Under the pieces are notes generated by a model. The model ran no database searches, was not told the DNA's origin, and was given only the letters and a program-made list of their open reading frames with translations. A DNA stretch of 38,375 nucleotides from Clostridiaceae bacterium (GTDB taxonomy: Bacteria > Bacillota > Clostridia > Saccharofermentanales > Saccharofermentanaceae): positions 1 through 38,375 of the forward strand of contig JAAYCT010000036.1 of the NCBI GenBank assembly GCA_012729635.1, written 5' to 3'. This document shows positions 5,516 through 38,375 of the stretch, one piece after another. Within the stretch, counting starts at the first letter, position 1. Every line of letters begins with the position of its first letter. The position numbers and the translations under genes were made by a program.

Positions 5516-5552
5516 AAAGGCCACCTCCGATTCAAAAACAGATAACACTACT

Positions 5553-5558
5553 ATTATA
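5553..5558 (-). promoter_or_regulatory. Candidate -10 box for dnaN
   Basis: The minus strand carries a perfect TATAAT 38 bases upstream of the dnaN start. The -35 region at 17-base spacing is poor, so this is a suggestion only. A perfect 12-base palindrome GACCGATCGGTC lies further upstream at 5617-5628 and may be an operator. Confidence 0.35.
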
Positions 5559-5713
5559 CAGAAAAAATTAAGAATTTCTACGAATTTACGACGATCCGGG
5601 ATGAAAAAGGAGAATAGACCGATCGGTCCTTGTAACATAAATGAAATATAACGACAATATATATGAAAGAAAAGTTTTCCACAATACGGATTTTTTGTAA
5701 AACCGAAAAAATG

Positions 5714-5729
5714 TTTGTAACAATGTTTC
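5714..5729. promoter_or_regulatory. GTAAC palindrome, copy 3 (in oriC)
   Basis: TTTGTAACAATGTTTC, one mismatch from the consensus TTTGTAACANTGTTAC. It lies inside the AT-rich part of oriC, upstream of dnaN. A weaker half-site (CTTGTAACATA) is at about 5629-5639. Confidence 0.45.
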
Positions 5730-6020
5730 ATCTCAAACGATCGATGAAATATGTAAGAAAGATATCCCCCTTCTTATTATGGTGAGTGAAAAGAGTGAAT
5801 AAGCCTGAAAAGCCATGAATACAGGCATTTTCGGTGTGAATAACGGGCGCATAAGTTGGGGGAAAAGAGGGGGGGAAAGGCCGGTAGAATCACACGGTTT
5901 TCATCCACAGGATCCGAACACGATATCCCGATGAAATTATCCACATATCGACAGAAAAAAGTGGAAAACCTTTTTTGGAAAAAGTGTTTGTCATAATCGA
6001 AAAGGGATCCGTCGATAAAA

Positions 6021-23261: not shown

Positions 23262-23305
23262 AAAGACGTTGTGTCCGATATTCGGGCTCGACGTCTTTTC
23301 TTTTA
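23262..23305 (+). terminator. Leader terminator/attenuator ahead of amt
   Basis: AAAGACGT (23262-23269) pairs with ACGTCTTT (23291-23298), with an inner hairpin GTCCGA-TAT-TCGGGC, followed by TCTTTTAT (the T run starts within the stem). It begins about 12 bases after the -10 box, as at glnA, and is within the transcript that reads into amt, so it is a good candidate attenuator. It is 150 bases after gltD and could also end the gltBD transcript. Confidence 0.7.
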
Positions 23306-23324
23306 TCTAAAAGGAGGTGGAACG

Positions 23325-25061
23325 ATGTTATCGTCGGTAAGCACAATTTGGGTCTTGGTTGCGGCGGCGCTGGTGTTTTTTATGCAGGCCGGTTTTGCGA
23401 TGGTGGAAACGGGTTTGACCCGTGCCAAGAACGCAGGAAACATTTTGATGAAGAACGTGATGGACTTTTCGATCGGAACGCTCTTGTTTTGGCTTTTCGG
23501 ATTCGGGATCATGTTCGCGGGCTCCGGTGCGCTGTTCGGAGGCTTTGACATTTTAAGTCGGGGATTATACGCCGACATTCTTCCGGCCGGTGTATCCAAA
23601 TACGCGTTCATGATTTTTCAGACGGTGTTCTGCGCGACGGCTGCGACGATCGTGTCCGGGGCGATGGCGGAACGCACGAATTTTCTGGCGTACTGTGCCT
23701 ACAGCGCGGTGATCAGCGGTCTGGTCTATCCGGTCAGCGGTCACTGGATCTGGGGCGGCGGATGGCTCGCACAGCTCGGCTTTCATGATTTTGCCGGATC
23801 GACCGCCGTGCATATGGTCGGCGGTGTCGCCGCATTAATCGGCGCGATAATCCTGAAGCCCCGTATCGGGAAATACGATAAAAACGGAAAATCCAGAGCG
23901 ATCCCCGGACACAGCCTCACCTTGGCCGCGCTCGGCGTGTTTATTCTGTGGTTTTGCTGGTTCGGCTTTAACGGAGGATCGACGGTGTCCGCGGAAGGCG
24001 ACGGCGTATTGGCGTCCATGGGAAGCATCTTCGTGACGACCAATCTGGCGGCGGCAGCGGCGACCGTTGTTGTAATGATCATTACGTGGATCCGCTACAA
24101 AAAGCCGGACGTATCGATGACATTAAACGGAGCCCTCGCCGGATTGGTCGGAATCACCGCCGGATGTGACGCGGTCAGCCCGGCCGGTGCGGTATTGATC
24201 GGAATCATTTGCGGCGTGCTGGTTTTTGTCGGGATCGAGTTGATCGATAAAGTTGCCCGGGTCGATGATCCGGTCGGCGCGATCGGTGTGCACGGAGTCT
24301 GCGGCGCGGCCGGAACGATCATGGTCGGATTATTTGCCGTCGACGGCGGGCTCTTTTACGGCGGCGGCTTCAAGATGCTCGGTGTGCAGTCGCTCGGTGT
24401 CGTATCCGTAATGGGATGGGTCGCGGTCACCATGACCGTCGCGTTCCTGATCATCAACAAGGTGATTGGATTGCGTGTCTCGAAAGAAGAAGAGATGGTC
24501 GGATTGGATATTTCGGAGCACGGACTCGAGAGCGCGTACGGTGACTTCAGCATCATCGATCGAAGCGTTCTGGATTTGGTGACCGAAGGTGCGCCCTTGG
24601 CGGCCGCTGTTCCGGCAGGTGCGGTTCCGGCGGGAGCGGTCCATATCGATGAAGCGATTCCCGTTCAGATGAAGACCGCGCCTGCGACGCCGATCGCTTC
24701 GGACGTCCCGATCACGAAGATCGAGATCATCACGAAACAAAACAAGTTCGAGGTGCTCAAAGAAGCAATGGACAAGATCGGGATCACCGGCATGACGGTC
24801 ACACAGGTTCTCGGTTACGGGGTCCAGGGCGGACGGACCGAATATTACCGCGGGATCAAAATGGAGACGACGCTTCTGCCGAAGATCAAAGTCGAGATCG
24901 TCGTCAGCAAAGTTCCGGTCGACCTCGTGGTCGCGGAGGCCAAGAAAGTCCTCTACACCGGAAATATCGGAGACGGAAAGATCTTTATCTATCAGGCGCT
25001 CAATGTGATCAAGGTTCGTACCGGGGAGGAAGGGTACGACGCGTTGCAGGACGTCGAGTAA
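23325..25061 (+). CDS. amt: Ammonium transporter fused to a PII (GlnK) domain
   Basis: A 578-residue fusion. Residues 1 to about 400 form an Amt channel: multiple membrane helices starting STIWVLVAAALVFFMQAG, the ETGL and AERTNF motifs, and the pore histidines H163 (AVHMVGG) and H323 (GVHGVCG). After a linker of about 60 residues with AGAVPAGAV repeats, residues 463-578 are a complete PII signalling protein with T-loop QGGRTEYYRG (Y508 at the position of GlnB Tyr51), LLPKIKVEIVV and TGNIGDGKIFIY. Separate GlnK normally plugs Amt reversibly; here the plug is tethered. The ATG at 23325 has a strong AAGGAGGTGG. It is preceded by the shared operator and attenuator and followed by a terminator. 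Confidence 0.95.
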   Translation: MLSSVSTIWVLVAAALVFFMQAGFAMVETGLTRAKNAGNILMKNVMDFSIGTLLFWLFGFGIMFAGSGALFGGFDILSRGLYADILPAGVSKYAFMIFQTVFCATAATIVSGAMAERTNFLAYCAYSAVISGLVYPVSGHWIWGGGWLAQLGFHDFAGSTAVHMVGGVAALIGAIILKPRIGKYDKNGKSRAIPGHSLTLAALGVFILWFCWFGFNGGSTVSAEGDGVLASMGSIFVTTNLAAAAATVVVMIITWIRYKKPDVSMTLNGALAGLVGITAGCDAVSPAGAVLIGIICGVLVFVGIELIDKVARVDDPVGAIGVHGVCGAAGTIMVGLFAVDGGLFYGGGFKMLGVQSLGVVSVMGWVAVTMTVAFLIINKVIGLRVSKEEEMVGLDISEHGLESAYGDFSIIDRSVLDLVTEGAPLAAAVPAGAVPAGAVHIDEAIPVQMKTAPATPIASDVPITKIEIITKQNKFEVLKEAMDKIGITGMTVTQVLGYGVQGGRTEYYRGIKMETTLLPKIKVEIVVSKVPVDLVVAEAKKVLYTGNIGDGKIFIYQALNVIKVRTGEEGYDALQDVE

Positions 25062-25117: not shown

Positions 25118-25137
25118 GCGTTGCCTCGGAAAGGTAA

Positions 25138-25325
25138 TTACAAGACAAACAGAACAATCCAATACCCGATCCCCACCGGATATGCGCGATCGAAAACAAA
25201 AGCCCGACGATCAGCACATTGATCGCGGAGGCGGTTTTCGAGCGGCTGCGCATCACATACGCCAGAAAAGCGATCGGCAGGGCGCGAAAAAGAATCTCTT
25301 CCGAAGGTCCGGAGAAAAGAGCTGA
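25138..25325 (-). pseudogene. Remnant of a CPBP membrane protease gene (copy 1)
   Basis: The minus strand still encodes the core of the CPBP protease found intact at 31558-32319: the SGPSEEILFR catalytic segment, RSRSKTASAIN and FSIAHIR, then the C-terminal GYWIVLFVL end with its TAA at 25138-25140. Compared with the intact gene, 154 bases are missing at the CCACCG junction (25173-25178), which breaks the frame, and the N-terminal part is absent. Bases 25173-25289 match 31747-31863 with one mismatch, while both flanks are diverged. It sits directly after the lipoprotein gene, the same place as the intact protease in copy 2. Confidence 0.85.
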
Positions 25326-25334
25326 AAGAAACTT

Positions 25335-27725
25335 CTATTTACCTTCGTCAAAGAAAGCCTGTAAGCGATTTTCGATGACCAGAACGGCTTCGTCCGTGCT
25401 TTTCTGACCGGTAAAAACCAAAGACAATTCTTCAAAAATAATGCGGGCGGCTCGGTCATTATGTGTTTGAAAATTTTGAGCGGAGCAGACCAGCGTTCGA
25501 AAAGCTTCGAGGGTTTCTTTTTGGGGGAGCGGATTCTGCGGGACCGGAGGACCGAGCGGGCCATCCGGAGTTTGTATATACGGGTCGGCTTGATTTATCC
25601 CCAAACCCGGAAGCATTTGATCAACAGTCCCATCCGATATCTGAAGATCGGAGACCGGAGGAGTCATGCCCTTGAGGTAATCCGAATAGTTTTTTTCGAG
25701 CATTAAATCAAAGGATGATGTGCGGATCGGCATACATCCGATACTATAGTCAATATCATCAAATCGATCCTGAATTTCCGGCGAAAGAATATATTTCACA
25801 AGTGTCCATGCCTCATCCGGTTGCCCGGACGCGGTCGGAATCGAGATTAACAGATTTGAGAAAATAATCGGGGCGCTTTTCGATACTCCCGGTGAGGATA
25901 TATAGCGCACATCCGATCCGAAATAGTGTTCCATATCATAAAGAAACGCAAGGTAACTTCGTAATTTCTTCTCGGAAAAGAGGATTTTTCCTTCCGCAAA
26001 TTGCTCTTGCAAAGACAGGGATTCATAATTGTTTGGTGTGCCGAAATTTCGTGCAAAGGAAACAATCGACCTTAAAAGATCAGTGTTAAGACATTGTCCT
26101 TCCGTGCCGGAAAGAATAATCTCGTTCATTTGAAGCGAAATGAATAATTCGGCGATTTCTTGAGGGGAATTTCTTTGGAGAATGTGCGGAGTTTCGCTCA
26201 TCGAGCGAAGATTATTTTCGAATTCGCCGAGTGTTTTTCCGTAAAAAGTATCGGATAAATGATTTTGGGCATACATGCCGTTGAGGCCGAAAAACGGAGA
26301 TATATGGCATCGGGTACCGTCGGTTTCACCCGCCGCCCAGACATTATCGAGAAAAACGGCGGCATCAAACGAGTCATCTTGTGCAATCAACTGATTCATA
26401 TCCGTCAATGCGTTCGTGGAAGCAATCCGCTCGTATTCCGAAGGATCAATGAAAAGAATGTCCGGAGGATGATCGGATAATAAGTCCACATACAAGGCAT
26501 CGATCGGTTTAACCGTTGCGGCGCTGTCCTTCGCTTGTGGTGCGTTATAGTCAATGAAATCAAAAATGTACTCCGGATGTGTTTTCGTAAAAAGCCGAAT
26601 ATAATGATTCACAATTTCCGGAGACTGTGTACACAATCCAACACGAACGGTTATCGCTGGTCGATCATCTTCTGAAAATGAGACGGAAAACAAACCATAG
26701 TTTTGCCGAACGGATTCGGCATCTGATAAATCGAGATCGGATATGTTTGTAATTCCGATAACGAGTATTTGATCTCCTTCGTTATGAAAGACAGAAGTAA
26801 CCGGAAAAAAATCATGAAGAGTCTTATCCAGATATTTGGAAAAGACGTTAATTTGTTTGTTATAGCAGTATATTGCGCTCTCGGTCTCGAGGAGAACACG
26901 GTCGGAATCGGGTTGCCGGGAAGCGATCAACTGAGCGCTATAAACTTCGGTACCCACAAATCCGATCAGTTGATCCTGTCGCTCGGTTTTTATCGGAAGG
27001 ATCGACAGTGTTTGCAGAAATAGATTCGAATTCGAATCCAAATAGAGTGTTTGGATCCGTGTTTTTTCGACGAAATTTACCGATTGGAAATAAGTTCCGT
27101 ATTCCGGCACGGTGGTTTTCTCAATGATTTGACCGGCGGTGTTCGTTAAAAAGAGTGTATCTTCCGTAAGGAAAGCAAAGGTATCAATCCCGTTAAAGGA
27201 AATATCGCAGATCGCCGGGGTACCGAGGCTTGATAAATCAATCGGAGCGGTTTCACCGGTTGCCGGAAGAAGTGTCACTCCGCCCAGTCCGATGTCCCAC
27301 GGCCCGCTACCTTGAGTCTCGTAAAAAATATAGGCGAAACCGTCCGTGCTCGAAAAAAGGTATGCCGGCGCCGCGTTCTTCGGCAACGCAACAGGACATA
27401 TTTCCCGGATCGATCCGTTTGAATCGAGAACCGCAACGAATGCTGAATTTGGGTCGGAACAAAGAAGATAAAGTTCAGAGGGCGTGGCGTCGAAGTCGAT
27501 GAAAGTCAGATTTCCGGGGATCATCTCGTCGGTTTCTCCCCAAAGAGAATTTGTTATATTCATGACAGAACAAAGGTTTTGAAAAACCGAAAAGTATCTT
27601 TTGGAAGAATCAAGGATGATCTCCGAAGCATCTTTTCTTTTGCACGCAGAAAATCCGAAACTCATGATCAGGAGCATTATTACGACCAATAAACTTAGTT
27701 GACGGAGTCCTTTTCTTCTGTTCAT
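25335..27725 (-). CDS. Large lipoprotein with a solute-binding domain (cassette 1)
   Basis: A 796-residue protein starting MNRRKGLRQLSLLVVIMLL with a hydrophobic segment and a plausible lipobox FSAC, so probably anchored outside the membrane. Residues about 45-350 are made of short beta-rich repeats (DSNGSIREI, DTFAFLTED and similar) that look like a propeller. From about 370 (ITVRVGLCTQSPEIVNHYIRLF) to the end it is an extracellular solute-binding domain of the sugar-ABC type, ending in SGQK-like FTGQKSTDEAVLVIENRL. The start codon overlaps the stop of the ATPase (TGATG). No sugar-type permease is present; the membrane partners are FtsX-like. Its homologue is at 32313-34685. Substrate unknown. 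Confidence 0.8.
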   Translation of the reverse strand: MNRRKGLRQLSLLVVIMLLIMSFGFSACKRKDASEIILDSSKRYFSVFQNLCSVMNITNSLWGETDEMIPGNLTFIDFDATPSELYLLCSDPNSAFVAVLDSNGSIREICPVALPKNAAPAYLFSSTDGFAYIFYETQGSGPWDIGLGGVTLLPATGETAPIDLSSLGTPAICDISFNGIDTFAFLTEDTLFLTNTAGQIIEKTTVPEYGTYFQSVNFVEKTRIQTLYLDSNSNLFLQTLSILPIKTERQDQLIGFVGTEVYSAQLIASRQPDSDRVLLETESAIYCYNKQINVFSKYLDKTLHDFFPVTSVFHNEGDQILVIGITNISDLDLSDAESVRQNYGLFSVSFSEDDRPAITVRVGLCTQSPEIVNHYIRLFTKTHPEYIFDFIDYNAPQAKDSAATVKPIDALYVDLLSDHPPDILFIDPSEYERIASTNALTDMNQLIAQDDSFDAAVFLDNVWAAGETDGTRCHISPFFGLNGMYAQNHLSDTFYGKTLGEFENNLRSMSETPHILQRNSPQEIAELFISLQMNEIILSGTEGQCLNTDLLRSIVSFARNFGTPNNYESLSLQEQFAEGKILFSEKKLRSYLAFLYDMEHYFGSDVRYISSPGVSKSAPIIFSNLLISIPTASGQPDEAWTLVKYILSPEIQDRFDDIDYSIGCMPIRTSSFDLMLEKNYSDYLKGMTPPVSDLQISDGTVDQMLPGLGINQADPYIQTPDGPLGPPVPQNPLPQKETLEAFRTLVCSAQNFQTHNDRAARIIFEELSLVFTGQKSTDEAVLVIENRLQAFFDEGK

Positions 27726-28390
27726 CAATGTAAACACCCGTCCTTTATTTGAAGAACGCGGTCCGCAATCGTTTCGATTTCATGATCATGCGTAACCACA
27801 ATAATCGTTTTCCCCTCCTGCTTCAATTTCTCAAAGATGGAGTAAATCTCCGCTTTGGTCGTCGAATCCAAAGCCCCGCTGGGTTCATCCGCTAAAATCA
27901 GTTTGGGCTGATTCATCAGCGCCCGGGCGATTGCCACCCGCTGTTTCTGACCGCCCGACATTTGGTATACTTTTCGGTTTTTGAGTTCTCCGATTCCCAA
28001 TTCATTCAATAATTCTTTGCCGCGGAGTATGCCTTCTTTTATGCTTCTTTTCGAAAACATGACCGGCACCATAACATTATCGATCGCGGTTCGGTGCGAG
28101 ATCAGGCCGAAGTCCTGAAGGACAAAACCGATGTGTTCATTGCGCAGGCGTGCAAGCTGTGTGTCTTTTTGAGTGTTCATGTCGATGCCGTCAAACCTGT
28201 ATTCGCCCGAACTCGCACGATCCAAGCCCCCGATAATATGTAACAGGGTTGATTTTCCGGAACCGGAAACTCCGTATATCGCAAGCATTTCTCCTTCCCG
28301 AACGGACATATTCAGACCGGAAAGAGCTTTTACCGGAACGTCTTTATGCGGATGATAGGTCTTGGTGATCTCCTTCATCTCAATGATCAT
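27725..28390 (-). CDS. ABC transporter ATPase, MacB/LolD type (cassette 1)
   Basis: A 221-residue ATPase with Walker A GVSGSGKSTLLHI, Q-loop LQDFGLI, signature MSGGQKQRVAIARAL, Walker B LILADEPSGALDS and the H-loop THDHE. This is the subfamily that works with FtsX-like permeases in MacB, LolCDE and bacteriocin or antimicrobial-peptide systems. It is preceded by permease B (9 bases away) and its stop overlaps the lipoprotein start. The Shine-Dalgarno GAAAGGACTGAG is identical in the cassette 2 copy. Confidence 0.93.
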   Translation of the reverse strand: MIIEMKEITKTYHPHKDVPVKALSGLNMSVREGEMLAIYGVSGSGKSTLLHIIGGLDRASSGEYRFDGIDMNTQKDTQLARLRNEHIGFVLQDFGLISHRTAIDNVMVPVMFSKRSIKEGILRGKELLNELGIGELKNRKVYQMSGGQKQRVAIARALMNQPKLILADEPSGALDSTTKAEIYSIFEKLKQEGKTIIVVTHDHEIETIADRVLQIKDGCLH

Positions 28391-28399
28391 TGTGATTAC

Positions 28400-29626
28400 T
28401 CAGTCCTTTCGTATGTATTCGACCGGCGAGGTCCGGATCGCGGCCAGATATTGAGGCAGTATTTGAATCGTACAGACAACCAGGATCAGCAGGAGAATCC
28501 ATCCCGTGTATCGACCGTTTTCGGATAACTTTAAGTTGGTAAAGTTAACATATAAAGCACTTCCGACCAACGTGCCAAGAAAAATCAAGGGGTAATATAC
28601 TCCGCAGAACAATAAAATGCATTGTCGCCACGAGGCTCCGCAAATATAATAGGTAGCCATCTCCTTTTTGCGTTTGCTCAGTTGGAGGAACACGGATGCA
28701 AAAAGACTGGTGACAGTAAGGATCAGAAGAAGCACAGAGAAGCGGACCAAGAGCAAAAAATCCTCCCGGTGATCGTTTTTGTATTTTTCGATCATTTCTA
28801 CTCCGCTGTGTACACGACCCATACCGAAAATGTTCTCCAATTCAAATGTAACAGAGGATAGATCCGCATAGGCTTCAATGCTCACAATGTATTTCGCACG
28901 TCGAGCGGATGTTCCGATGGCTTGACCGTTTGAACTTGTCGGACTCATGATGAACCCGTGCATTTCTTTGTTTTCGATCGAATTATCCTCGGTTGCCAGT
29001 AACGAAAGCGTTGTGGTCACATCCTGAAGGCCGGGGCGATTCGATGTTGTGTTAAAATAAAAAATTAGCGACTTCGCGTCCACAAATCCGACGATCGTAA
29101 TTAAGGCATCCGCAGATTCGATCGACATGTCTTTGTCGATCGTAATCAAAGATACGGGAATCTGATCGCCGATCTGAAGATATTCCCGGGCATATTCGGT
29201 CAGAACGACCTCATTGGGATTTTCCGGCCAAGATCCGGCAACCAGTTTGTAACGCACCGAGTGATACGTGTCGGAATGGATCGGATCCAGCCTCAACACT
29301 ACTTCCGAGGCATCGATCGGAGCAAAAATTCCGAAAGTGCTAATCGGCTGATAATCGTGAACCCCCTCTATTTCCATGACATTATTACGATATGTAAAAA
29401 ATTCCGGCGTATCGGTTCCCGGCAAAAGATCCGTGTTAACCGTGTGGACCAAAATCTTTTCTGTCAATTGTACGTTTTGTGCCATAATCAGGCGTTGGGA
29501 ATACGCGACATAAGATCCGGCTAATCCTTGCAGTAAATAGGCGAACAAAACCGCAAATACAAAAATCGTCAGATTGGACAAAAGATTATCCCCGATGATA
29601 TTCGCGGCTAAGATCCATTTTTTCAC
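28400..29626 (-). CDS. FtsX-like permease B (cassette 1)
   Basis: About 408 residues starting from a GTG at 29626 that overlaps the permease A stop (GTGA) and follows a GAGG binding site; longer upstream frames would lie inside permease A. Topology: one N-terminal helix (IFVFAVLFAYLLQG), a large outside domain of about 200 residues, then three C-terminal helices with FLQLSKRKKEMATYYICGASWRQ, the cytoplasmic segment typical of FtsX/MacB-family permeases. The last residues PVEYIRKD recur as PVEQTRKD in copy 2. It is the intact counterpart for judging the frameshift in copy 2. Confidence 0.85.
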   Translation of the reverse strand: MKKWILAANIIGDNLLSNLTIFVFAVLFAYLLQGLAGSYVAYSQRLIMAQNVQLTEKILVHTVNTDLLPGTDTPEFFTYRNNVMEIEGVHDYQPISTFGIFAPIDASEVVLRLDPIHSDTYHSVRYKLVAGSWPENPNEVVLTEYAREYLQIGDQIPVSLITIDKDMSIESADALITIVGFVDAKSLIFYFNTTSNRPGLQDVTTTLSLLATEDNSIENKEMHGFIMSPTSSNGQAIGTSARRAKYIVSIEAYADLSSVTFELENIFGMGRVHSGVEMIEKYKNDHREDFLLLVRFSVLLLILTVTSLFASVFLQLSKRKKEMATYYICGASWRQCILLFCGVYYPLIFLGTLVGSALYVNFTNLKLSENGRYTGWILLLILVVCTIQILPQYLAAIRTSPVEYIRKD

Positions 29627-30825
29627 TTCGAACCTCTTTCCGAAAAAAGAAACTTCTTTTCCAATCGCAGAAGCTTCATTCGAATAACAAATCCTAAAAG
29701 AACGATTCCCAGAAACGAAATCGCATTTCCGGTAAAAAAACACAAAAAATTTGCCCAAATATTTTCCGATATAAGAACTCGACTGAACGGAAGCAAAATC
29801 AAAGCACCTCCGATTATGGTTGAAAGAATGAAACAGATCATAATCTCCGATAATGCACATTTCCAAATTGTTTTTAGGGAGCCGCCACTTATCAGATAGA
29901 CTTGAAACTCATTCTTTCTCAGTGATACCAGATAATCAAAAAGAGACAAGACATTGACGGCGAGCAAAAGAATGACAGCGGCGATCGTGGTGTATTCCGT
30001 TAAGAAGACGGCCGCCTGATCGGGATTCGATTTCGTTTGAGCGGGTACAAATTCTACGGAGTAAACTCCTGCTTGAAGCATTCTTTGATTTAATCGCATC
30101 AGATCGCTATCGTTGAGCGGTTGACAAAATTGAATGCTAATACGGGTGCAAAGATCGGTCAACTCGAAGAATTGATCGTAAGATGATATTATATATGCTT
30201 CGGTATCTGCGGAAACCGAATGTTTGAAGTCGATAGAACCTTTTGATCGCCAGAGTTTTCCGTTGATGCGGTACGTTGCTCCCGGGATTCCCGGATTGCC
30301 CTCCTGTCCGTCCGATGTTATAGCGACCTCACTGGAATCCGGCGAAGATTCTTCGGGATAGATAACAAACCCCGACAATAAGCCATCCAAATATATGGTG
30401 TCCCTATCGTCGAAGAAGTGCATATCGCCTCCGTCAGTCAGGCGGTCCGAAGATATATTCGGATAAAAAGCGACGATCGATAATGCGGGGGACAATCCGG
30501 ATATGCGTTCATGTGTTTTGTAATATTCTTCAGGAATCAGACCACAAATATAAACATCCAAAATTTGATTGCGCAAAGGAAAAAGTTCGTTCAGAACTAT
30601 TTCGACTTGACCGGAATCAAGTGCATGATTCGATGAATAAAATAATCTTTTGCCCCATTCCGTGTGCGCAAAGCGGTTTTGATTGTACGAGAGGATGACC
30701 CCGGAAAAAACCAATTGGACAAAAAAAACCAAGGCCATCGTCAAAAGGAGGAGGCCGAAAATCATCTTATGAACCAACATATGCGTAATCGAAGAATGAA
30801 TAACGAAAAACTTGCGTCTGTACAT
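29623..30825 (-). CDS. FtsX-like permease A (cassette 1)
   Basis: A 400-residue membrane protein: one N-terminal helix (MIFGLLLLTMALVFFVQLVF), a long extracytoplasmic domain, then three helices including AAVILLLAVNVLSLFDYL followed by LRKNEFQVYLISGGSLKTIW, the FtsX-family coupling segment. Start at 30825 with a GAGG site. It lies 113 bases downstream of the secreted-protein gene, behind a strong stem-loop, and overlaps permease B by 4 bases. Together A and B would form a heterodimeric four-plus-four-helix ABC permease with the ATPase below. Confidence 0.82.
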   Translation of the reverse strand: MYRRKFFVIHSSITHMLVHKMIFGLLLLTMALVFFVQLVFSGVILSYNQNRFAHTEWGKRLFYSSNHALDSGQVEIVLNELFPLRNQILDVYICGLIPEEYYKTHERISGLSPALSIVAFYPNISSDRLTDGGDMHFFDDRDTIYLDGLLSGFVIYPEESSPDSSEVAITSDGQEGNPGIPGATYRINGKLWRSKGSIDFKHSVSADTEAYIISSYDQFFELTDLCTRISIQFCQPLNDSDLMRLNQRMLQAGVYSVEFVPAQTKSNPDQAAVFLTEYTTIAAVILLLAVNVLSLFDYLVSLRKNEFQVYLISGGSLKTIWKCALSEIMICFILSTIIGGALILLPFSRVLISENIWANFLCFFTGNAISFLGIVLLGFVIRMKLLRLEKKFLFSERGSK

Positions 30826-30859
30826 TCAAGAACCTCGGTAGATTTTGAAATTCTCCATC

Positions 30860-30903
30860 GCGTCCGGCCGATTCAACCGTCAGAACAGAAAGCGGCCGAA
30901 CGC
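30860..30903 (-). promoter_or_regulatory. Stem-loop between secreted protein and permease A (cassette 1)
   Basis: On the minus strand GCGTTCGGCCG pairs with CGGCCGGACGC (11 pairs, one wobble) around a 22-base loop. No T run follows, so it is a pausing, processing or stabilising stem rather than a clear terminator. A different stem is at the equivalent place in cassette 2. Confidence 0.5.
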
Positions 30904-30938
30904 AACGGAACGATCAACCTCATTATTTCATACAAATA

Positions 30939-31340
30939 TCAATTAGCATACCAATAATTACTGAGGCGACCGTGAGTGGATGTAAAGACATCCACGATAC
31001 CCAACCCATATGCACCGTCATTCGCCTCAGCGGAGATTCTGTATGTTCTTTGGGTCGAGTAATATTTTATTCCGTATGCTTCCTTCGTATTGGTCTTTAG
31101 TACAACGTGATTGTTCTGTTGATAAGTCCCAATAACGGAAGCGTATATTTTGTAGTCATATACTCCGGCTGTATCCGGTTGTGCGTTAAATATCAGCGTG
31201 GTTGTGGTTTTATCTTTGATCAACGTATGCGGGTAGTATTTTACATATCCGCCCGGATAAACAAAGGCAGCAGATAAAGAAGCGACCGAAATGAGGGTAA
31301 CAAGCAACATGCTTACCAATACAATAATGGCTTTTTTCAT
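30939..31340 (-). CDS. Small secreted protein, bacteriocin-like (cassette 1)
   Basis: A 133-residue protein with an obvious signal peptide (MKKAIIVLVSMLLVTLISVA, cleavage near SAA). The mature part of about 107 residues is rich in Tyr, Thr and Asn with alternating strand patterns (KTTTTLIFNAQPDTAGVYDY) and ends LSNYWYAN; it has no cysteines. The start has GAAAGGAG. It resembles the cassette 2 protein weakly over the C-terminal half (Y-x-ASV/RADV, a long strand, DGAYG, T-x-DG). Lactococcin-972-type precursors come with a similar operon (secreted protein, membrane protein, ATPase), so a bacteriocin or surface-active peptide is my best guess from context only. Confidence 0.6.
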   Translation of the reverse strand: MKKAIIVLVSMLLVTLISVASLSAAFVYPGGYVKYYPHTLIKDKTTTTLIFNAQPDTAGVYDYKIYASVIGTYQQNNHVVLKTNTKEAYGIKYYSTQRTYRISAEANDGAYGLGIVDVFTSTHGRLSNYWYAN

Positions 31341-31392
31341 GATGGAACTCCTTTCAAACAAATGACATAAAATGAAGCTGATCTTGTCAACA

Positions 31393-31419
31393 AACATATC
31401 ACTTGCCCCCCCCGGTCAA
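31393..31419 (-). promoter_or_regulatory. Poly-G promoter of cassette 1
   Basis: On the minus strand: -35 TTGACC (plus 31414-31419), then eight G, then CAAGTGA, then extended -10 TGATATGTT (hexamer at plus 31393-31398). The spacer is 15 bases, two short of optimal, and consists mostly of the G8 run, so changes of one or two G would alter promoter strength. The -10 is 53 bases from the start codon. Confidence 0.6.
31406..31413. repeat. Mononucleotide C8/G8 tract in the promoter spacer
   Basis: Eight consecutive C on the plus strand between the -35 and -10 of cassette 1. Runs of this kind are prone to slipped-strand length changes. A run of at least 13 occurs at the equivalent place in cassette 2. 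Confidence 0.8.
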
Positions 31420-31450
31420 GCATTTATGACAATATTTAACAATATTGTTT
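31420..31450 (-). promoter_or_regulatory. Candidate operator upstream of the cassette 1 promoter
   Basis: A perfect 12-base palindrome AACAATATTGTT (31438-31449) starts a pair of direct repeats ATATTGT spaced 10 bases on the minus strand, just upstream of the -35. Paired direct repeats one helical turn apart are a common activator layout. The same region is not available for cassette 2. Confidence 0.35.
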
Positions 31451-31557
31451 TTGCGCGTTGGTGCAGCGGTACGGTGAAACTGAACACAAAGGGGGTAGAA
31501 ATCAGACACAGTGATCGGATCGGACAATTCAGAACAGGGACTCCAAAAGTATTTTAA

Positions 31558-32319
31558 TCACGCCACTAACAGAACAATCAAATACCCTCCACCCACCGCG
31601 AGAACATTGCTGATGCTGTGGATCGCCATCGAATAATATACGCTCTTAGTCTTCAAAAAAACGAAGCCCTGCACGGTACCGAGCGCGAACGCGAAGATCA
31701 GCTGGATCACGTCGTAGCGGAAGGACAAGCCGGTCGGGCCGAACGACCACCGGATATGCGCGATCGAAAACAAAAGCGCGACGATCAGCACATTGATCGC
31801 GGAGGCGGTTTTCGAGCGGCTGCGCATCACATACGCCAGAAAAGCGATCGGCAGGGCGCGAAACAGGATCTCCTCCGACGGGCCGGTGAAAAAGAGCTGA
31901 AACGCCATCGTACCCGCGATATTACGTGCGTTCAGCGGATAGCCGTACGGGCGGATCAAATCAAACGCGTACCCGATGATGTAGGAAAGGATCGTATACA
32001 CGAAGAGCACGGCGCTCATGATGCCGACGATCTTCATGCCGAGCCGGACCTCGCCTTTTCGAAAGCCGAAATCGATGCCGAAGAGCTTGGCCAGAATCAG
32101 GATCGGTACGAGTGCAATCAGCGCCTGAATGACATGATGGACACCATTTGCCATAAACGCCCGGTCCGGATCGATCACCCCATAGTCGATCGGATCCGCG
32201 ATGATCGCGCCGACCTTACTCGCGAATTGCTGAAAAGCAAAGATCCCAAGGATTGCAAGGACGATCCCGATAATCCGTGCCGGGCTGAGCTTCGAAGGCG
32301 ATTCCGATGGCTTTACCAT
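31558..32319 (-). CDS. CPBP family intramembrane protease (cassette 2)
   Basis: A 253-residue membrane protein with about eight hydrophobic segments and the CPBP/Abi catalytic motifs: EEILFR (EExxxR, in TGPSEEILFRALP), FSIAH (FxxxH) and IHSISN. The family includes CAAX-prenyl-protease-like enzymes, and members next to bacteriocin genes act in immunity or processing. Its start overlaps the end of the lipoprotein by 7 bases. Base composition is visibly GC-richer than the rest of the cassette, closer to the backbone. A shortened, broken relative follows the lipoprotein of cassette 1. Confidence 0.88.
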   Translation of the reverse strand: MVKPSESPSKLSPARIIGIVLAILGIFAFQQFASKVGAIIADPIDYGVIDPDRAFMANGVHHVIQALIALVPILILAKLFGIDFGFRKGEVRLGMKIVGIMSAVLFVYTILSYIIGYAFDLIRPYGYPLNARNIAGTMAFQLFFTGPSEEILFRALPIAFLAYVMRSRSKTASAINVLIVALLFSIAHIRWSFGPTGLSFRYDVIQLIFAFALGTVQGFVFLKTKSVYYSMAIHSISNVLAVGGGYLIVLLVA

Positions 32320-34685
32320 CCGGCTTCTCTGTTTTCGGCGATATAAGTTTGAAGACGATTCTCAATAATGGACAAACAATCTTCTTTTGTTTTGTGTCCG
32401 GAAAAAAATGCTTTCAACTCTTCAAATACAATTCCGGTAATATCCGGATTTGCACTCAAAGGAATCCGGGCGGAAAGAACGATCTCCATAAACGCTTGCT
32501 TCGCTTCCGTTTCCGAAAAAGGATATACCGAGGGACGATTATCCGGGGGAAGGGCGCCGGTGTTTCCGGTCTCTTCCGCAAGAAGGATCTGCTCGTCCAT
32601 GATCTCAGTCTCCGAATCCGAATAAAGATAAATTCGTATGGATTCACCTTTCAGGTATCGGTCATAACCGGAGTGGATCATCTTATCCAACGAGGATCGA
32701 AGTACGGGCATCATATCCCCGCTGACTTCGCTTGCCGAGTATCGGTCTTGTATGTTCTCGGAGAGAAGAAATTTAAGAAACATCCAAGCGTCGTCGGGAA
32801 CGTTGGTTTTCGCAGAAATACCAAAGTATTGGTCCGACCGAATAATCGGGGACCCCTCTTTTATGCCGGGAGCACCCATATATCCGACTTCTTCGTTGAA
32901 ATATTCAGCGAAACACAGAAAATACTCACAATTGAAAATAATCTCATTCAACAGGAGAATGTCATGGTCTTGAAGTTGCTCGGCGATGGGTTTGCTGTCC
33001 TTATATGGAGGTTTTCCGAAATTTTCGCACAAGGTAAGGAGATTTATAAACTCCTGTCGGTCGAACGTTATCGCTCCGGAATCGCGATAAAATATTATTT
33101 GCTCGTAATACGGATAAAAAGCGCTAAAAAGGTTTTTATCCGTGTCGTGTCGGATGATGTGAGTATTCTCCGGCAAATTCCTCATAAAAGCTTCGAACCC
33201 CTTCGAATCATAGGTCTTGATTTTGGAAACCAAATCGTTTTTTCCCATAAATCCTCGGATGGAAAAGAAAGGTGCGAGCAAACGAAAGGAGCGCTCGTAT
33301 TCGCTTCCGCCCCACACGTTGGGTAAAAGGAGGTTTGAGTCAAATGACGTGTCCGTCTTGAAGCGTTCACCTAAATCAATAAAAAGATCGGAAAACTCGT
33401 ACCGGTAAATGTATTCCGAGCCCAAACAGACGATATCCGGCCCGTTTCCCGAGAGCAGATCTGCGTTCAGTCGTGTGATTGGATCCAAATCGGAGCCTCC
33501 GAGTGCGCGATAATCAATGAATTCGATCACGTACTCGGGATAGGATCGTTGAAAAATACCACCATACAAAGATACTCTTTCCGTGTCACCGCAACACAAG
33601 CCGATTCGCAGGATTGTCTTATTTTCGACTCCCGGCGACAGTACGATGGAATAAAAGCCATAATCCGCGAAATTCGTTTCAGAAAGACCGCCAGAAAAGC
33701 CTTGAACCCCGAAAGTCTCAAAAGTTTGAACTCCCGTACATAGAAGCGGCCATTCGCTGTAGAAACCCTCGGCTATTTTATCAATGCATCGTATAAGTTG
33801 CTTGAAATCCGGGTCACACTCATATACGTTTTTTTCGGTTTCCACGTAGCATCCCGCCGAATCTCCCTTTGCCGGACGAATCAGCCTTGCGTTGTACCAA
33901 TCGGAGGCTTCGATACCGGTTATTTGCATTTTGGACAGCACTTTATTCTTTGAGAGAGATCGGGTAATCAAATACGGTCGTCCCTCCAAGTCGATAGACA
34001 AGATCATTACAACATCGTCTTCGATCTTAAGCATTGACAGAAAAGTAGTTTTATCGGGAGAAGAAAATTGATTTTGAAGAATTCCCTCCGTGTCAAAAAT
34101 AAAGATATGTGAGGATGTTATCACATGAAAAAAATGATCGTTATCAAAATCTATCTCGCGAATAACCGTTCCGTCCAACTCCTCCAATTCGATTTGCGAG
34201 GAGAGTTCTCGTCCGTCAGCATCGAAATGCCGCAAAGCATATTTACGGCTCCAGAGGCCCTCTTCCGAGTTTTGGACCAGCAGGAAAACACTTTCGTCGC
34301 CAATCGGAAAAAAATGCTTCGTCAACCGCTCCCTTTTTTCGTCGAGCGAGACCACGGATTCAATTCCATACCCTTCATCCATACGGATTACGCTTGTTTT
34401 TGAATTGATCATGGCAAGAACGTATGTTGCATTCATTCCTTTTTTCATCGATATAAAATCAGTATCAGACTCGCGAATCGGAGCTCCGATTACGCCAGAC
34501 AAAGCTTCCGTCCAATTTGCCAGGGTTTTATTCATCTGAAACTTTACGATATAGCTGGTTGTGGATTTGATAGAAGTTTTTCTATTCCCGCTACAACCGA
34601 GCAACAGAAACAATTCCGCTACGAGCAGTATGGCAAGCGCGGAGCGGAGCAGAATCCGGAGCCATCTTTCAAAGCGCAAACTCAT
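32313..34685 (-). CDS. Large lipoprotein with a solute-binding domain (cassette 2)
   Basis: A 790-residue homologue of the protein at 25335-27725. Signal peptide and lipobox: RSALAILLVAELFLLLGCSG with C at about 31. N-terminal half: beta-rich, propeller-like repeats (DADGRELSSQIELEE, IFDTEGILQNQF). From about 360 (TILRIGLCCGDTERVSLYGGIF) it is a solute-binding domain with LNADLLSGNGPDIVCLG and the C-terminal FFSGHKTKEDCLSIIENRLQTY. ATGA overlap with the ATPase. The two copies are clearly related but divergent throughout, so duplication is old. Confidence 0.8.
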   Translation of the reverse strand: MSLRFERWLRILLRSALAILLVAELFLLLGCSGNRKTSIKSTTSYIVKFQMNKTLANWTEALSGVIGAPIRESDTDFISMKKGMNATYVLAMINSKTSVIRMDEGYGIESVVSLDEKRERLTKHFFPIGDESVFLLVQNSEEGLWSRKYALRHFDADGRELSSQIELEELDGTVIREIDFDNDHFFHVITSSHIFIFDTEGILQNQFSSPDKTTFLSMLKIEDDVVMILSIDLEGRPYLITRSLSKNKVLSKMQITGIEASDWYNARLIRPAKGDSAGCYVETEKNVYECDPDFKQLIRCIDKIAEGFYSEWPLLCTGVQTFETFGVQGFSGGLSETNFADYGFYSIVLSPGVENKTILRIGLCCGDTERVSLYGGIFQRSYPEYVIEFIDYRALGGSDLDPITRLNADLLSGNGPDIVCLGSEYIYRYEFSDLFIDLGERFKTDTSFDSNLLLPNVWGGSEYERSFRLLAPFFSIRGFMGKNDLVSKIKTYDSKGFEAFMRNLPENTHIIRHDTDKNLFSAFYPYYEQIIFYRDSGAITFDRQEFINLLTLCENFGKPPYKDSKPIAEQLQDHDILLLNEIIFNCEYFLCFAEYFNEEVGYMGAPGIKEGSPIIRSDQYFGISAKTNVPDDAWMFLKFLLSENIQDRYSASEVSGDMMPVLRSSLDKMIHSGYDRYLKGESIRIYLYSDSETEIMDEQILLAEETGNTGALPPDNRPSVYPFSETEAKQAFMEIVLSARIPLSANPDITGIVFEELKAFFSGHKTKEDCLSIIENRLQTYIAENREAGW

Positions 34686-35356
34686 CCGATCAGCACTCCG
34701 TCTTTCATATGCAATACGCGATCCGCCATATCGGCCACCTCTTGATCGTGGGTGACGATTACAATGGTTTTTCCGTTGTCACGTAAGTTTTTAAAAATAT
34801 TGTAAATTTCGATTTTGGTTGCTGAGTCAAGAGCGCCCGTCGGCTCGTCTGCCAGAATAAGCGATGGCTCGTTAATCATGGCACGGGCGATTGCGACGCG
34901 CTGTTTCTGACCGCCGGACATCTGATAAACCTTTCGCTTCGATAGTTCCGGAATACCGAAACAATCCAGAACTTCCTTAACCCGACCCTGCATATCGCGC
35001 AATTTTCCTTTCGAAAAAAGAAATGGAACCGAGATATTCTCATAGGCGGTACGATAAGGAATCAAACCAAAATCCTGAAGCACAAATCCGATTTCCGAAT
35101 TGCGGATCTGCGCCAGACGTCGATCCGGGCATTTTGCGATGTTTTGGTCTTTGAACATGTACAATCCCTCTGTCTGGCGGTCCAGGCAGCCCAGGATATG
35201 AAGCAAAGTCGATTTGCCGGATCCGGAAACACCGAAAATTGCAAGCATTTCACCCTCGAAAACCTTCAAATTCAAGCCGCTTAAGGCTTGAACCGGCACA
35301 TCCTTATGCGGATAATATACTTTTGTAATATTTTCCATGCGTATAAGCGTATTCAT
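34682..35356 (-). CDS. ABC transporter ATPase, MacB/LolD type (cassette 2)
   Basis: 224 residues with GVSGSGKSTLLHI, LQDFGLI, MSGGQKQRVAIARA, LILADEPTGALDS and THDQE. It is the best conserved gene between the two cassettes; both start YYPHKDVPV or YHPHKDVPV shortly after the N terminus. Start at 35356 with GAAAGGACTGA, three bases after the permease B stop. Confidence 0.93.
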   Translation of the reverse strand: MNTLIRMENITKVYYPHKDVPVQALSGLNLKVFEGEMLAIFGVSGSGKSTLLHILGCLDRQTEGLYMFKDQNIAKCPDRRLAQIRNSEIGFVLQDFGLIPYRTAYENISVPFLFSKGKLRDMQGRVKEVLDCFGIPELSKRKVYQMSGGQKQRVAIARAMINEPSLILADEPTGALDSATKIEIYNIFKNLRDNGKTIVIVTHDQEVADMADRVLHMKDGVLIG

Positions 35357-35359
35357 CGG

Positions 35360-36582
35360 TCAGTCCTTTCTGGTTTGCTCAACCGGAGATGAGCGACGGG
35401 CAAGAATGTATAACGGAAGAATAAACAGAAAAGAAACGGCGAACAGAATCAACAGAATCAACCATGAATCCTTCCCGTCAAACCACCGGGGGTTTTTATT
35501 GAAGACCATGAATACCGTACTGCCGGAAATAAAACTCAGTAATAAGATCGGGAAATATACGACACAGAAAAAACCGATACTCTGTTGCCACGTAACACCG
35601 CATATGTAATAGACGGTCATCTCCAACTTCTTTTTTCGCAATTGAAGAAACACGGAGGAAAAGAAAGTGGATATTGCCAGAAAGGAGACGATGAATAGAT
35701 TGCGCAATACCCGGATCAGTTCGAAACGATGGGATACATGATAGCGCTCAATCAACTCTTTTCCGATCTGGATATGATCCTCCGGGAAAAGACCGGATAA
35801 CGCATGCTTGATTTGTTGCGGAGGGATACCCTGTTCCACCGTAATGATTAAGGAATGTGCTATCGGATCAAATCGCATCGGTTTTCCGGAGGCATCCGTC
35901 GGAGGAACACCTACGCCGGTCGCAACGTTATTTTCATCGCCGTCCGGGGAAATGTTTGACAAGGTAGTTGACATATGCGAAAGATCACGGTGATCGCCCA
36001 CACAAGAGAATTTAATCATCTGCGCGTCCATATGTAAAAAGCCCGTAACCGTCAACTCTCCGTCGATTACTTCGTAATTCATATCCTTGGGAGTTCCCGA
36101 AAAAGAAAAAAGGCGAACCGGAATTTTATCTCCGATTCGATAGTAGCGCGTCATGTTTTCAGAAAGCGCAACTTCGCAAGGGGCGCTCGGCCATTTTCCG
36201 GAGACGAGCGGGTAGCGCATATTGCCATATACGTCATCAAGAATCGGATCGAGATGAAAGGGGAGCCCATTGGTACGATCAATAGAAAAAAAGATCCAAA
36301 AGCGGTTGCGGCACAGGATTTGACACCCGGCAAATCCGAAATGGTCTCCAGTGTCTGTTCAAAGTCATCATCAAAAGAAAATTCGCAAATCAAACTTTTG
36401 CTAACCAACACTTTATGAGTAAGACCGGAGGTCTCCGCCAAGTCGACGGCTTCGTAATAGGAGCGAACCAAACTTGAAGTCCCTTGCAACAGATAAACAA
36501 TGATGGCCCATAATACAAAACTGAGCACAAATGACAAGATATCATCGCAAATAATCGAAGCAATCAATAATGCTTTTTTCAT
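35360..36582 (-). pseudogene. FtsX-like permease B, frameshifted (cassette 2)
   Basis: Two overlapping frames together match the intact permease B of cassette 1. The first frame (ATG at 36582, ATGA overlap with permease A) reads normally to AATAFGSFF, then runs off into unrelated residues. The homologous continuation, SIDRTNGLPFHLDPI, is in the -1 frame and continues to PVEQTRKD and the stop at 35360. The switch point is a run of seven U in the mRNA (plus-strand A run at 36286-36292) read as UCU UUU UUU C. A one-base length change in the run, a sequencing error, or -1 ribosomal slippage on this run would each restore a product of about 407 residues, the same length as copy 1. Confidence 0.85.
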
Positions 36583-37751
36583 ATCTTACCGCCATTCACA
36601 TAGGAGAACCGTGTTCGTCCTTTTCCGATTGTCATTCGAAACAAGAACCCCAACCATGTGATCAACAATAAGACCATCGCATTTCCCATGAAAAAGAGAG
36701 GTGAAACATCCCAAAAGAGAATGCCTTCAATACGAGGGCGAATAGGCAGAAGGGAAACCAGTCCCCCGATTAGAACGGACAGTGTCGTCACAATCGTAAG
36801 TTCAAGCAACGCATATCTTCGAATTGTGCCGATTGTCGCGCCGGATAACCGATAAACTTGAAATTCCTTTGTTCGAAGGGATAGTAGATAATCAAACAGG
36901 GAAAGAATATTGATGATCAACAAGAACACGACGGCAACCGTTTGTCCGATACCCGCAAACAAATCGATCGGAACGTTTTCATGCGAAGCGACCGATGAAA
37001 AAGAGTTTTTCACAGGAAGCATACGCTCAGCAAGCTGATTGAGCTGAAGAAGCGTGGTCTCCGAAGGCGGCGACGAAAAAACAACACTCACCTGATCGCA
37101 GGTTTCGGAATAAGAAAAAAACAGCCGGTAATCAACAGCGGTAAAACTTCTTTGCAGAGAGGGAGGAAGAGAAGAGATTGAACCGATTCCGGTGCAGTTC
37201 CACTGCATGCCTTCGATCGACAGTGAAAAAAACGTGTCGGCCAAGAGATCGGGGCGAACATTATATTCCAGTATTAACAAGTCAAACAATTCATCACTAA
37301 AAAATAGACCCGGTGTCATCTCCTCGAAACTCCAATTTCCGCGACTACAAGTAAAAGTTCTTCTGTCGCTGATTTTAGGAAAAAACGAAACTAAAGTTAA
37401 CGATGAAATCGAATAAAATGAATCGGAATCAGCGGATATTTCTGCTTTCTTCGGCAGAGGAACTTCAGCGGAAATAATAATTTCGTCAATCCTATCCTGA
37501 TATTCCTGAAGCTCGGAGATAAAAGAATAAACATTTTCCTTTCGCGCATCGAGCAGAGAACAAACATAGGTGTTCGGCATTAATTCACCGCTTTCGTCCT
37601 TTTTCTCAACAAGTCCCTGCAAATTATCGGACAACAAGAGCTGAACAAGAAATACCACCGATATCATCAGGATGAGGACGGTGACCAATGTCCAATGATT
37701 TATCATATGGCTGATCGTTGATACGAGCGCAGAAGTTTTGAGTCGATGCAT
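36579..37751 (-). CDS. FtsX-like permease A (cassette 2)
   Basis: 390 residues with an N-terminal helix (LVTVLILMISVVFLVQLLL), an outside domain of about 230 residues and three C-terminal helices. VVFLLIINILSLFDYLLSL followed by RTKEFQVYRLSGATIGTIRR matches cassette 1 permease A. It overlaps permease B by four bases. It starts 165 bases after the secreted-protein stop; the gap holds a strong stem-loop and an AT-rich stretch with a possible extended -10 (TGATATTCT on the minus strand), so the transporter genes may have their own promoter. Confidence 0.82.
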   Translation of the reverse strand: MHRLKTSALVSTISHMINHWTLVTVLILMISVVFLVQLLLSDNLQGLVEKKDESGELMPNTYVCSLLDARKENVYSFISELQEYQDRIDEIIISAEVPLPKKAEISADSDSFYSISSLTLVSFFPKISDRRTFTCSRGNWSFEEMTPGLFFSDELFDLLILEYNVRPDLLADTFFSLSIEGMQWNCTGIGSISSLPPSLQRSFTAVDYRLFFSYSETCDQVSVVFSSPPSETTLLQLNQLAERMLPVKNSFSSVASHENVPIDLFAGIGQTVAVVFLLIINILSLFDYLLSLRTKEFQVYRLSGATIGTIRRYALLELTIVTTLSVLIGGLVSLLPIRPRIEGILFWDVSPLFFMGNAMVLLLITWLGFLFRMTIGKGRTRFSYVNGGKI

Positions 37752-37859
37752 TTTATCCTCTATTTCTTCGTTCGAAAGCGAGACAAAAATACTTTCTCAC
37801 ATATTTCTTACACGATTAAGAATATCACATTTCGACGAAACGTCTGTTGAGTGCAAAGA

Positions 37860-37894
37860 AGAGGCGGATCGGCACATAAGCATAATCCGCCTCT
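37860..37894 (-). terminator. Stem-loop after the secreted protein (cassette 2)
   Basis: On the minus strand AGAGGCGGAT pairs perfectly with ATCCGCCTCT around a 15-base loop, 22 bases after the stop of the secreted-protein gene, followed by TCTTTG. It is probably a partial terminator giving more secreted-protein mRNA than transporter mRNA. Confidence 0.6.
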
Positions 37895-37915
37895 GAAGCA
37901 AATGAGTTTGGCAAG

Positions 37916-38302
37916 TCAACGCGCAGTTCTTGAACCGGCGACAATAACATACCCGTCTGAGGTTTGTTTTGCGCGAAAATATCCCCATCCGTGGTCCCCG
38001 TAGGCCTTTGCTACTTTTTCCGCATTGCCGCAGCCAACGACTGTTATATATCCGTCGGTTTCCTGTTTGTCAAGAACGATACCGTTTTCATCCCGGACGT
38101 CCGCACGCAAATAGTAAGAAAACATATAGGAATCATCCAAATCCAGATTAACGGATAATTTCGTCTTGCAATTATCCCTAAAAGGCCATGCCCAGGCGTT
38201 ATAAGTTATGGTTCCATAGCCATAGGACTCTGCCAACAAAAGAGACGTGGATAAAGAAACGATGAGAAGCAGGGCAGTCAAAACGGATAACAGTTTTTTC
38301 AT
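37916..38302 (-). CDS. Small secreted protein, bacteriocin-like (cassette 2)
   Basis: A 128-residue protein with a signal peptide (MKKLLSVLTALLLIVSLSTS, cleavage near LLAES). The mature part starts ESYGYGTITYNAWAWP, has two cysteines (DNCKTK and VVGCGN) that could form a disulfide, and a Gly/Tyr-rich end (DHGWGYF, DGYVIVAGS). The ATG at 38302 has AAGGAGG. It differs strongly from the cassette 1 protein in its N-terminal half but shares a weak C-terminal pattern. A bacteriocin or toxin of the lactococcin-972 type is possible by organisation; I cannot confirm family membership. Confidence 0.6.
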   Translation of the reverse strand: MKKLLSVLTALLLIVSLSTSLLLAESYGYGTITYNAWAWPFRDNCKTKLSVNLDLDDSYMFSYYLRADVRDENGIVLDKQETDGYITVVGCGNAEKVAKAYGDHGWGYFRAKQTSDGYVIVAGSRTAR

Positions 38303-38356
38303 TACAAATACCTCCTTCTTAATGACATTCATTTGAAACAGTCAACGATATTGGTG

Positions 38357-38375
38357 ATTATACCCCCCCCCCCCC
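38357..38375 (-). promoter_or_regulatory. Truncated poly-G promoter of cassette 2
   Basis: On the minus strand a perfect TATAAT (plus 38357-38362), 55 bases from the start codon, is directly preceded by at least 13 G (plus-strand C run 38363-38375) where the contig ends. The -35 is outside the window. The location matches the G8 promoter of cassette 1. A poly-G sequencing or assembly artefact at the contig end cannot be excluded. Confidence 0.5.

What the first reader, a model, noticed from the sequence alone, without database searches (positions are those of the whole stretch)
25138..38375. Tandem six-gene cassette: secreted protein, two FtsX-like permeases, ATPase, propeller plus solute-binding lipoprotein, CPBP protease
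Seen: the same gene order and overlaps occur twice, about 6.6 kb apart, with old divergence. Known: MacB/LolD-type ATPases with FtsX-like permeases handle antimicrobial peptides and lipoproteins; lactococcin-972-type loci combine a secreted bacteriocin with a membrane protein and such an ATPase; CPBP proteases are linked to bacteriocin immunity. A large surface lipoprotein with a sugar-type binding domain is not part of those described sets as far as I know. Inference: a contact, bacteriocin or peptide export-and-immunity system in which the lipoprotein binds the secreted product or its target.
Basis: partly seen in the sequence, partly recalled or inferred. Interest (0 to 1): 0.75.

Follow-up and report, generated by a model that had tools for sequence, protein, structure and literature searches.

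The report
Phase-variable bacteriocin-like secretion and immunity cassettes
An uncultured clostridial bacterium carries several related operons that each make a small secreted protein beside a pump and a large surface lipoprotein, probably a toxin with its own protection, and their promoters contain slippery runs of a single base that could switch the toxin on and off at random.

Summary
The repeat is real, but it is a five-gene cassette, not six: Sec-signal protein, two FtsX-type permeases, LolD/MacB-type ATPase, SBP-type lipoprotein. It occurs twice here (B's second permease is frameshifted) and twice more in this genome, and in about 29 loci of the family, about 20 with the lipoprotein. The CPBP gene is not part of it: it is intact once, a remnant once, and in a congener it sits at the same amtB site without any cassette. 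New: the secreted-protein promoters carry homopolymers between the -35 and -10 (G8, G13, T12, G7). A genome-wide pattern search found a further secreted protein of the same size class behind such a promoter, and one such promoter differs between two assemblies only by A11 versus A12. This indicates slipped-strand phase variation, rare in 112 family genomes outside the genus. A 10-18 bp hairpin separates the secreted gene from the transporter. Best reading: phase-variable antagonism modules, a bacteriocin-like effector with an ABC-plus-lipoprotein immunity set, working like lactococcin-972 loci but not members by sequence. Supports: transporter-only loci, an empty site in a congener, exchange with an NlpC/P60-plus-lipoprotein module. 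No activity is shown; both structure models were too poor to use.

The parts
38363..38375 (-). Poly-G run (at least 13 G, cut by the contig end) directly 5' of a TATAAT -10 box: promoter spacer of cassette B
38357..38362 (-). -10 box TATAAT of cassette B secreted-protein gene
37916..38302 (-). Cassette B secreted protein, 128 aa, Sec signal, no known family
37860..37894 (-). Hairpin between secreted gene and perm1, cassette B
   Evidence: z -2.6
36579..37751 (-). Cassette B perm1, FtsX-type permease, 390 aa
   Evidence: PF02687 27.6 bits, over cut-off
35360..36582 (-). Cassette B perm2, FtsX-type permease, broken by a frameshift at a T7 run (about 36288-36294)
34682..35356 (-). Cassette B ABC ATPase, LolD/MacB type
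32313..34685 (-). Cassette B lipoprotein, 790 aa, lipobox LLGC, C-terminal SBP_bac_1-like domain
31558..32319 (-). CPBP intramembrane protease, intact; resident of this chromosomal site, not a conserved cassette gene
31393..31419 (-). Promoter of cassette A: TTGACC-G8-CAAGTGA-TATGTT, spacer 15
30939..31340 (-). Cassette A secreted protein, 133 aa, Sec signal, no known family
30853..30910 (-). Long hairpin (18 bp outer stem) between secreted gene and perm1, cassette A
   Evidence: z -3.6
29623..30825 (-). Cassette A perm1, FtsX-type permease, 400 aa
28400..29626 (-). Cassette A perm2, FtsX-type permease, 408 aa, GTG start overlapping perm1 stop
27725..28390 (-). Cassette A ABC ATPase, LolD/MacB type
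25335..27737 (-). Cassette A lipoprotein, 800 aa, C-terminal SBP-like domain
25135..25330 (-). Decayed remnant of the CPBP gene

Best explanation
Each cassette is a bacteriocin-like antagonism module. The first gene makes a small Sec-secreted effector (shown: signal peptide, own promoter; inferred: acts on competing cells, perhaps at the envelope). The two FtsX-type permeases and the ATPase form a MacB/LolCDE-like mechanotransmission transporter, and the SBP-type lipoprotein sits on the outer face and hands the effector, or its bound target, to the transporter, so that the producer is protected (inferred; logic like LanI plus LanFEG). A homopolymer in the spacer of the effector promoter slips in length and changes the -35/-10 distance, so cells in a clone switch production on and off (shown: tracts, and a one-base difference at one sister locus; inferred: switching). 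A conserved hairpin after the effector gene lets effector and transporter be made in different amounts (hairpin predicted, effect inferred).
For: Operon recurrence in about 29 family loci, about 20 with the lipoprotein, most with a 110-170 aa signal-peptide protein first. ATPases match the lactococcin-972 export model TIGR03608 at 213 bits, first or third among all models. Loci that kept transporter and lipoprotein but lost the secreted gene (G010) or carry a stop in it (G006), as with scbBC-only pneumococci (PMC11796350). Gain or loss: the C25 cassette is absent at the matching site in G001, and the amtB site carries an NlpC/P60 plus same-family lipoprotein module in G001 and none in G002. 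Homopolymer promoters: 4 of 4 assessable secreted-gene promoters against 2 of 268 other TTGAC sites in 137 kb, plus G13-TATAAT in B; pattern search 5 hits in this genome, 0 in the reversed control, and 4 hits in the 112 family genomes outside the genus; the L047 secreted gene was found by the pattern; A11 versus A12 at the C38 promoter between G000 and G001. Hairpin present in 7 of 7 loci folded.
Against: No secreted protein matches a bacteriocin family, and their fold is unknown. No activity data. The homopolymer promoters were first noticed after the fact, and they are absent from most of the more distant cassettes, so they are a trait of this genus and near relatives rather than of the cassette. 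Variation in tract length was seen only at a sister promoter, not at A or B. The secreted proteins do not diverge clearly faster than perm1, so an arms-race signature is not demonstrated. About 9 loci lack the lipoprotein.
Confidence: 0.5

Rival explanations
1. A surface-sensing or nutrient module: the lipoprotein binds a cell-wall glycan or sugar, the FtsX-type ABC complex signals or removes it, and the small secreted protein is a phase-variable adhesin or glycan-binding protein, not a toxin.
For: The C-terminal half of the lipoprotein is a genuine SBP domain closest to cellodextrin/sugar-binding proteins, and the same lipoprotein family serves ordinary sugar importers in this bacterial family (L035, L042, L044). 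Phase variation is common for surface proteins (general knowledge).
Against: There is no MalFG-type permease in the cassettes, so canonical uptake is unlikely. Transporter-only loci and empty sites fit an effector/immunity system better.
Confidence: 0.25
2. A lipoprotein- or exported-protein-handling machine of the LolCDE/MacB type: the ABC complex extracts or releases the secreted protein or lipoprotein as cargo, unrelated to competition.
For: ATPases match LolD and MacB models as strongly as TIGR03608; two different FtsX permeases plus one ATPase resemble LolC-LolE-LolD.
Against: The secreted proteins carry Sec signals; multiple divergent paralogues per genome with gain and loss are unusual for housekeeping. 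No MacA-like partner was recognised in the gene maps.
Confidence: 0.15
3. The homopolymers are incidental (assembly or compositional) and the promoters are not phase-variable.
For: Tracts of 7-8 G are not extreme; the B tract lies at a contig end.
Against: The longest tracts in 137 kb sit mostly in these promoters, the reversed-pattern control is 0 in this genome, B's run lies 5' of TATAAT so it is not the 3' no-signal read artefact, and G000 and G001 differ by one A in an otherwise identical promoter.
Confidence: 0.15

Closest known systems
Lactococcin-972-type bacteriocin loci (Lcn972, streptococcin B scbABC, mediterrocin)
   Same: Small Sec-secreted protein first, then membrane protein(s) and a TIGR03608-like ATPase; natural transporter-only loci exist
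   Different: Secreted proteins do not match Lcn972 or mediterrocin models; two separate 4-TM permeases in place of one 7-TM DUF1430 protein; extra SBP-type lipoprotein; homopolymer promoters
MacB / LolCDE / BceAB (type VII) ABC transporters
   Same: PF02687 permeases with one N-terminal TM, a large outer domain and three C-terminal TMs; LolD/MacB-type ATPase
   Different: Paired with a solute-binding lipoprotein and a small secreted protein; no MacA partner recognised
Lantibiotic immunity LanI + LanFEG
   Same: Proposed logic: outer-face lipoprotein plus ABC transporter protecting a producer
   Different: Permease type differs (FtsX, not ABC-2), lipoprotein is SBP-derived, no lantibiotic enzymes
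Phase-variable promoters with poly-G/poly-C spacers (e.g. Neisseria porA/opc; from general knowledge)
   Same: Homopolymer between -35 and -10 changes spacing
   Different: Here in a clostridial MAG genus, driving secreted-effector cassettes; switching not observed directly

Membership tests
Lactococcin-972-type bacteriocin system | Secreted precursor matches Lactococcin_972 / mediterrocin family models | tested here: not met
   12 secreted proteins in Pfam and NCBIfam: no Lcn972 match; mediterrocin model only 8.3 bits against a cut-off of 40
Lactococcin-972-type bacteriocin system | Sec signal peptide and small size | tested here: met
   N-terminal hydrophobic segment and 110-170 aa in about 20 loci, by hydropathy and sequence reading; SignalP not available
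Lactococcin-972-type bacteriocin system | Single 7-TM DUF1430 / TIGR01654 membrane protein | tested here: not met
   Two FtsX-type permeases, no DUF1430 match
Lactococcin-972-type bacteriocin system | ATPase of TIGR03608 | tested here: inconclusive
   213 bits over the whole model, below the curated cut-off of 254.85
Lactococcin-972-type bacteriocin system | Antibacterial activity and immunity | not testable with these tools
   needs bench work
FtsX/MacB-type ABC transporter | PF02687 domain and 4-TM layout in the permeases | tested here: met
   A perm2 28.3 and B perm1 27.6 bits over the 25.5 cut-off; A perm1 22.0 in the scan of the called protein, 25.6 in the genome search; TM layout 1+3 in relatives
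Sugar uptake ABC importer | MalFG-type permeases next to the SBP | tested here: not met
   absent from cassettes; 6-TM permease pairs stand next to other members of the lipoprotein family
Homopolymer phase-variable promoter | Homopolymer between -35 and -10 | tested here: met
   A, C39, C25, C34; B lacks its -35 because the contig ends
Homopolymer phase-variable promoter | Tract length differs between relatives | tested here: met
   C38 promoter A11 (G000) versus A12 (G001), otherwise identical; the cassette promoters themselves have no counterpart in the relatives searched
Homopolymer phase-variable promoter | Switching within a population alters expression | not testable with these tools
   needs reads or reporters
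Lantibiotic immunity LanI/LanFEG | ABC-2 type permeases and lanthipeptide genes | tested here: not met
   FtsX permeases; no lanthipeptide enzyme recognised among the genes mapped

The most novel reading that the evidence does not exclude
A clostridial genus keeps a switchable set of secreted effector / lipoprotein-immunity modules. Solute-binding lipoproteins derived from sugar importers act as immunity receptors for small effectors (with an FtsX-type ABC pump) or for NlpC/P60 hydrolases. Each module sits behind a homopolymer-spacer promoter, and modules swap at fixed chromosomal sites.
Probability: 0.3. Interest if true: 0.8.

Novelty: new variant of a known kind. Interest (0 to 1): 0.6.

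Why it matters
If right, it shows random on/off switching of bacteriocin-like production by promoter slippage in uncultured Clostridia, and a new job for solute-binding proteins (immunity rather than uptake). It also gives a simple search pattern (homopolymer between -35 and -10) that can find new effector genes with no sequence similarity to known bacteriocins; in this genome that pattern already found one candidate.

Tried and rejected
AlphaFold2 of lipoprotein A (mean pLDDT 34.9) and secreted protein A (44.7): too poor with only two sequences in each alignment, so no fold search was run. Profile searches of perm2 and of the secreted proteins against PDB: none, or weak matches mostly over the signal peptide. 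CPBP as cassette gene: rejected. Arms-race signature (secreted protein evolving faster): not supported by pairwise identities. Pattern hits in G015/G033 lie in front of a CsoR-like repressor and a metal ATPase with inverted repeats, so they look like operators, not slippage tracts.
Full report
What is there. The window is contig C35 of a 2.15 Mb, 44-contig genome and ends in a poly-G run. On the minus strand two cassettes follow each other: B (38302 to 32313) and A (31340 to 25335), each secreted protein, perm1, perm2, ATPase, lipoprotein. Identities A to B: secreted 30%, perm1 32%, ATPase 63%, lipoprotein 27%, so the split is old. Gene joins are tight: perm2 of A starts with a GTG overlapping the perm1 stop, B perm2 with an ATGA overlap, and the lipoproteins overlap the ATPases. 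B's perm2 is out of frame after a T7 run; whether this is decay, a switch or an assembly error cannot be told.

The CPBP gene. An intact copy follows B and overlaps its lipoprotein stop. After A only a remnant is left, 95% identical over 146 nt to the intact copy. None of the other cassettes examined has one. In the congener G001 an intact CPBP gene lies near amtB, followed by a secreted NlpC/P60 protein (PF00877, 4.5e-14) and a 749-aa lipoprotein of the same family as in the cassettes; in G002 amtB is followed directly by unrelated HTH/HipA-like genes. So CPBP marks the site, and modules change at it.

Survey. A lipoprotein search found the same operon in this genome on C39 and C25 and in G006, G010, G008 and others. 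A perm2 profile over 188 genomes of the order, with neighbourhoods read by script, gives about 29 loci in the family. About 20 have an SBP-type lipoprotein in the operon, and most start with a 110-170 aa protein with a Sec signal. Outside the family hits are rare: of 391 genomes drawn from the class, 9 match at E 1e-10, 4 of them in this family; G270 has secreted protein, perm1, perm2 and ATPase without lipoprotein. G010 has a cassette without secreted gene, and G006 a secreted gene with an in-frame stop. The C25 cassette is missing at the corresponding site in G001.

Proteins. Permeases are FtsX-type, with one N-terminal and three C-terminal hydrophobic segments. ATPases match LolD, MacB and the lactococcin-972 export ATPase TIGR03608 about equally. 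Lipoproteins carry a C-terminal solute-binding domain (profile against PDB: CbpC 7x0o, 7.5e-17; SBP_bac_1 in 9 of 10). The N-terminal half gives only marginal propeller matches, and the C25 version (421 aa) lacks it. The secreted proteins match nothing convincing in Pfam, NCBIfam or PDB. Both structure models were of low confidence and are not used.

Promoters. All assessable secreted-gene promoters in this genome have a homopolymer between TTGAC and the -10: A TTGACC-G8-CAAGTGA-TATGTT (spacer 15), C25 TTGACAAATGGCA-G7-TAAAAT (14), C39 with T12 (15), C34 with G7 (18); B has G13 directly before TATAAT. The spacers, read by eye, fall on both sides of the 17-bp optimum, as expected if loci are in different states. 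In 137 kb of this genome's sequence, 6 of 272 TTGAC sites are followed within 22 nt by such a run; four are secreted-gene promoters, one precedes an ABC transporter (C32), and one (C38) precedes a secreted protein with a weak NlpC/P60-like match (E 0.018) and a lipoprotein of this family. The naive probability is 6.7e-8, or 3e-6 without C34; the pattern was noticed after the fact and the 137 kb were not chosen at random, so these are guides only. Prospectively, the pattern search turned up the C34 gene, a 167-aa secreted protein followed by two lipoproteins. Over 115 family genomes the pattern gives 5 matches in G000, one place in G001 and 4 elsewhere (two of them metal-repressor-like operators by inspection), against 1 in reversed controls. 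At C38, G000 has A11 and G001 A12 in an otherwise identical promoter, the only direct sign of slippage. G006, G010 (second locus) and G017 show A/T runs at the same place; most more distant cassettes do not.

Hairpin. Between secreted gene and perm1 a hairpin with a different sequence in each locus is predicted in 7 of 7 loci (z -1.9 to -5.8). The A and B hairpins are not followed by clear T runs, so read-through with reduced expression, or mRNA stabilisation, is more likely than full termination (inference).

Mechanism. Sec secretion means the ABC complex is not needed for export, as argued for mediterrocin (PMC12345188). Immunity or removal by an FtsX-type transporter, helped by an outer-face lipoprotein, is the simplest reading and resembles LanI plus LanFEG in logic. 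It is inferred. The same lipoprotein family standing next to an NlpC/P60 hydrolase at the same genomic site supports a general effector/partner role, but also leaves open a glycan-binding role.

Novelty. The literature searched holds no paper that names lactococcin 972, FtsX and lipoprotein together (three hits for solute-binding protein, listings only), and no listed paper evidently links homopolymer promoter slippage to bacteriocin operons in Clostridia (listings only). The library covers open-licence papers only, so this is weak evidence of absence.

Noticed in passing
window 23271-25061 (+): Ammonium transporter fused to a C-terminal P-II regulator domain (PF00909 plus PF00543), next to gltB and gltD.
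   Followed up: partly
L150 3748-6621 and L031 4788-8256: Secreted NlpC/P60 protein (L150; weak match in L031) directly followed by a large lipoprotein of the cassette family, without FtsX permease genes in the same run.
   Followed up: partly
L134 3361-7391 (G001 C72): A small lipoprotein (about 114 aa) behind TTGACA-TAA-G7-CAAAGA-TATAAT, followed by a second lipoprotein, an ATPase and two membrane proteins of FtsX size: possibly a further cassette type.
   Followed up: partly
L136 about 5343-7354 (G000 C32): An ABC transporter operon behind TTGACA-G8-TATGAT, possibly also phase-variable.
   Followed up: no
L133 3541-7408 and L132 6133-9545: Shortened operons: a perm2-like protein with only two hydrophobic segments, next to the lipoprotein and (L133) a secreted protein, but no adjacent ATPase.
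   Followed up: no
window 36288-36294: T7 run at the frameshift in perm2 of cassette B; could be a second, coding phase switch.
   Followed up: no
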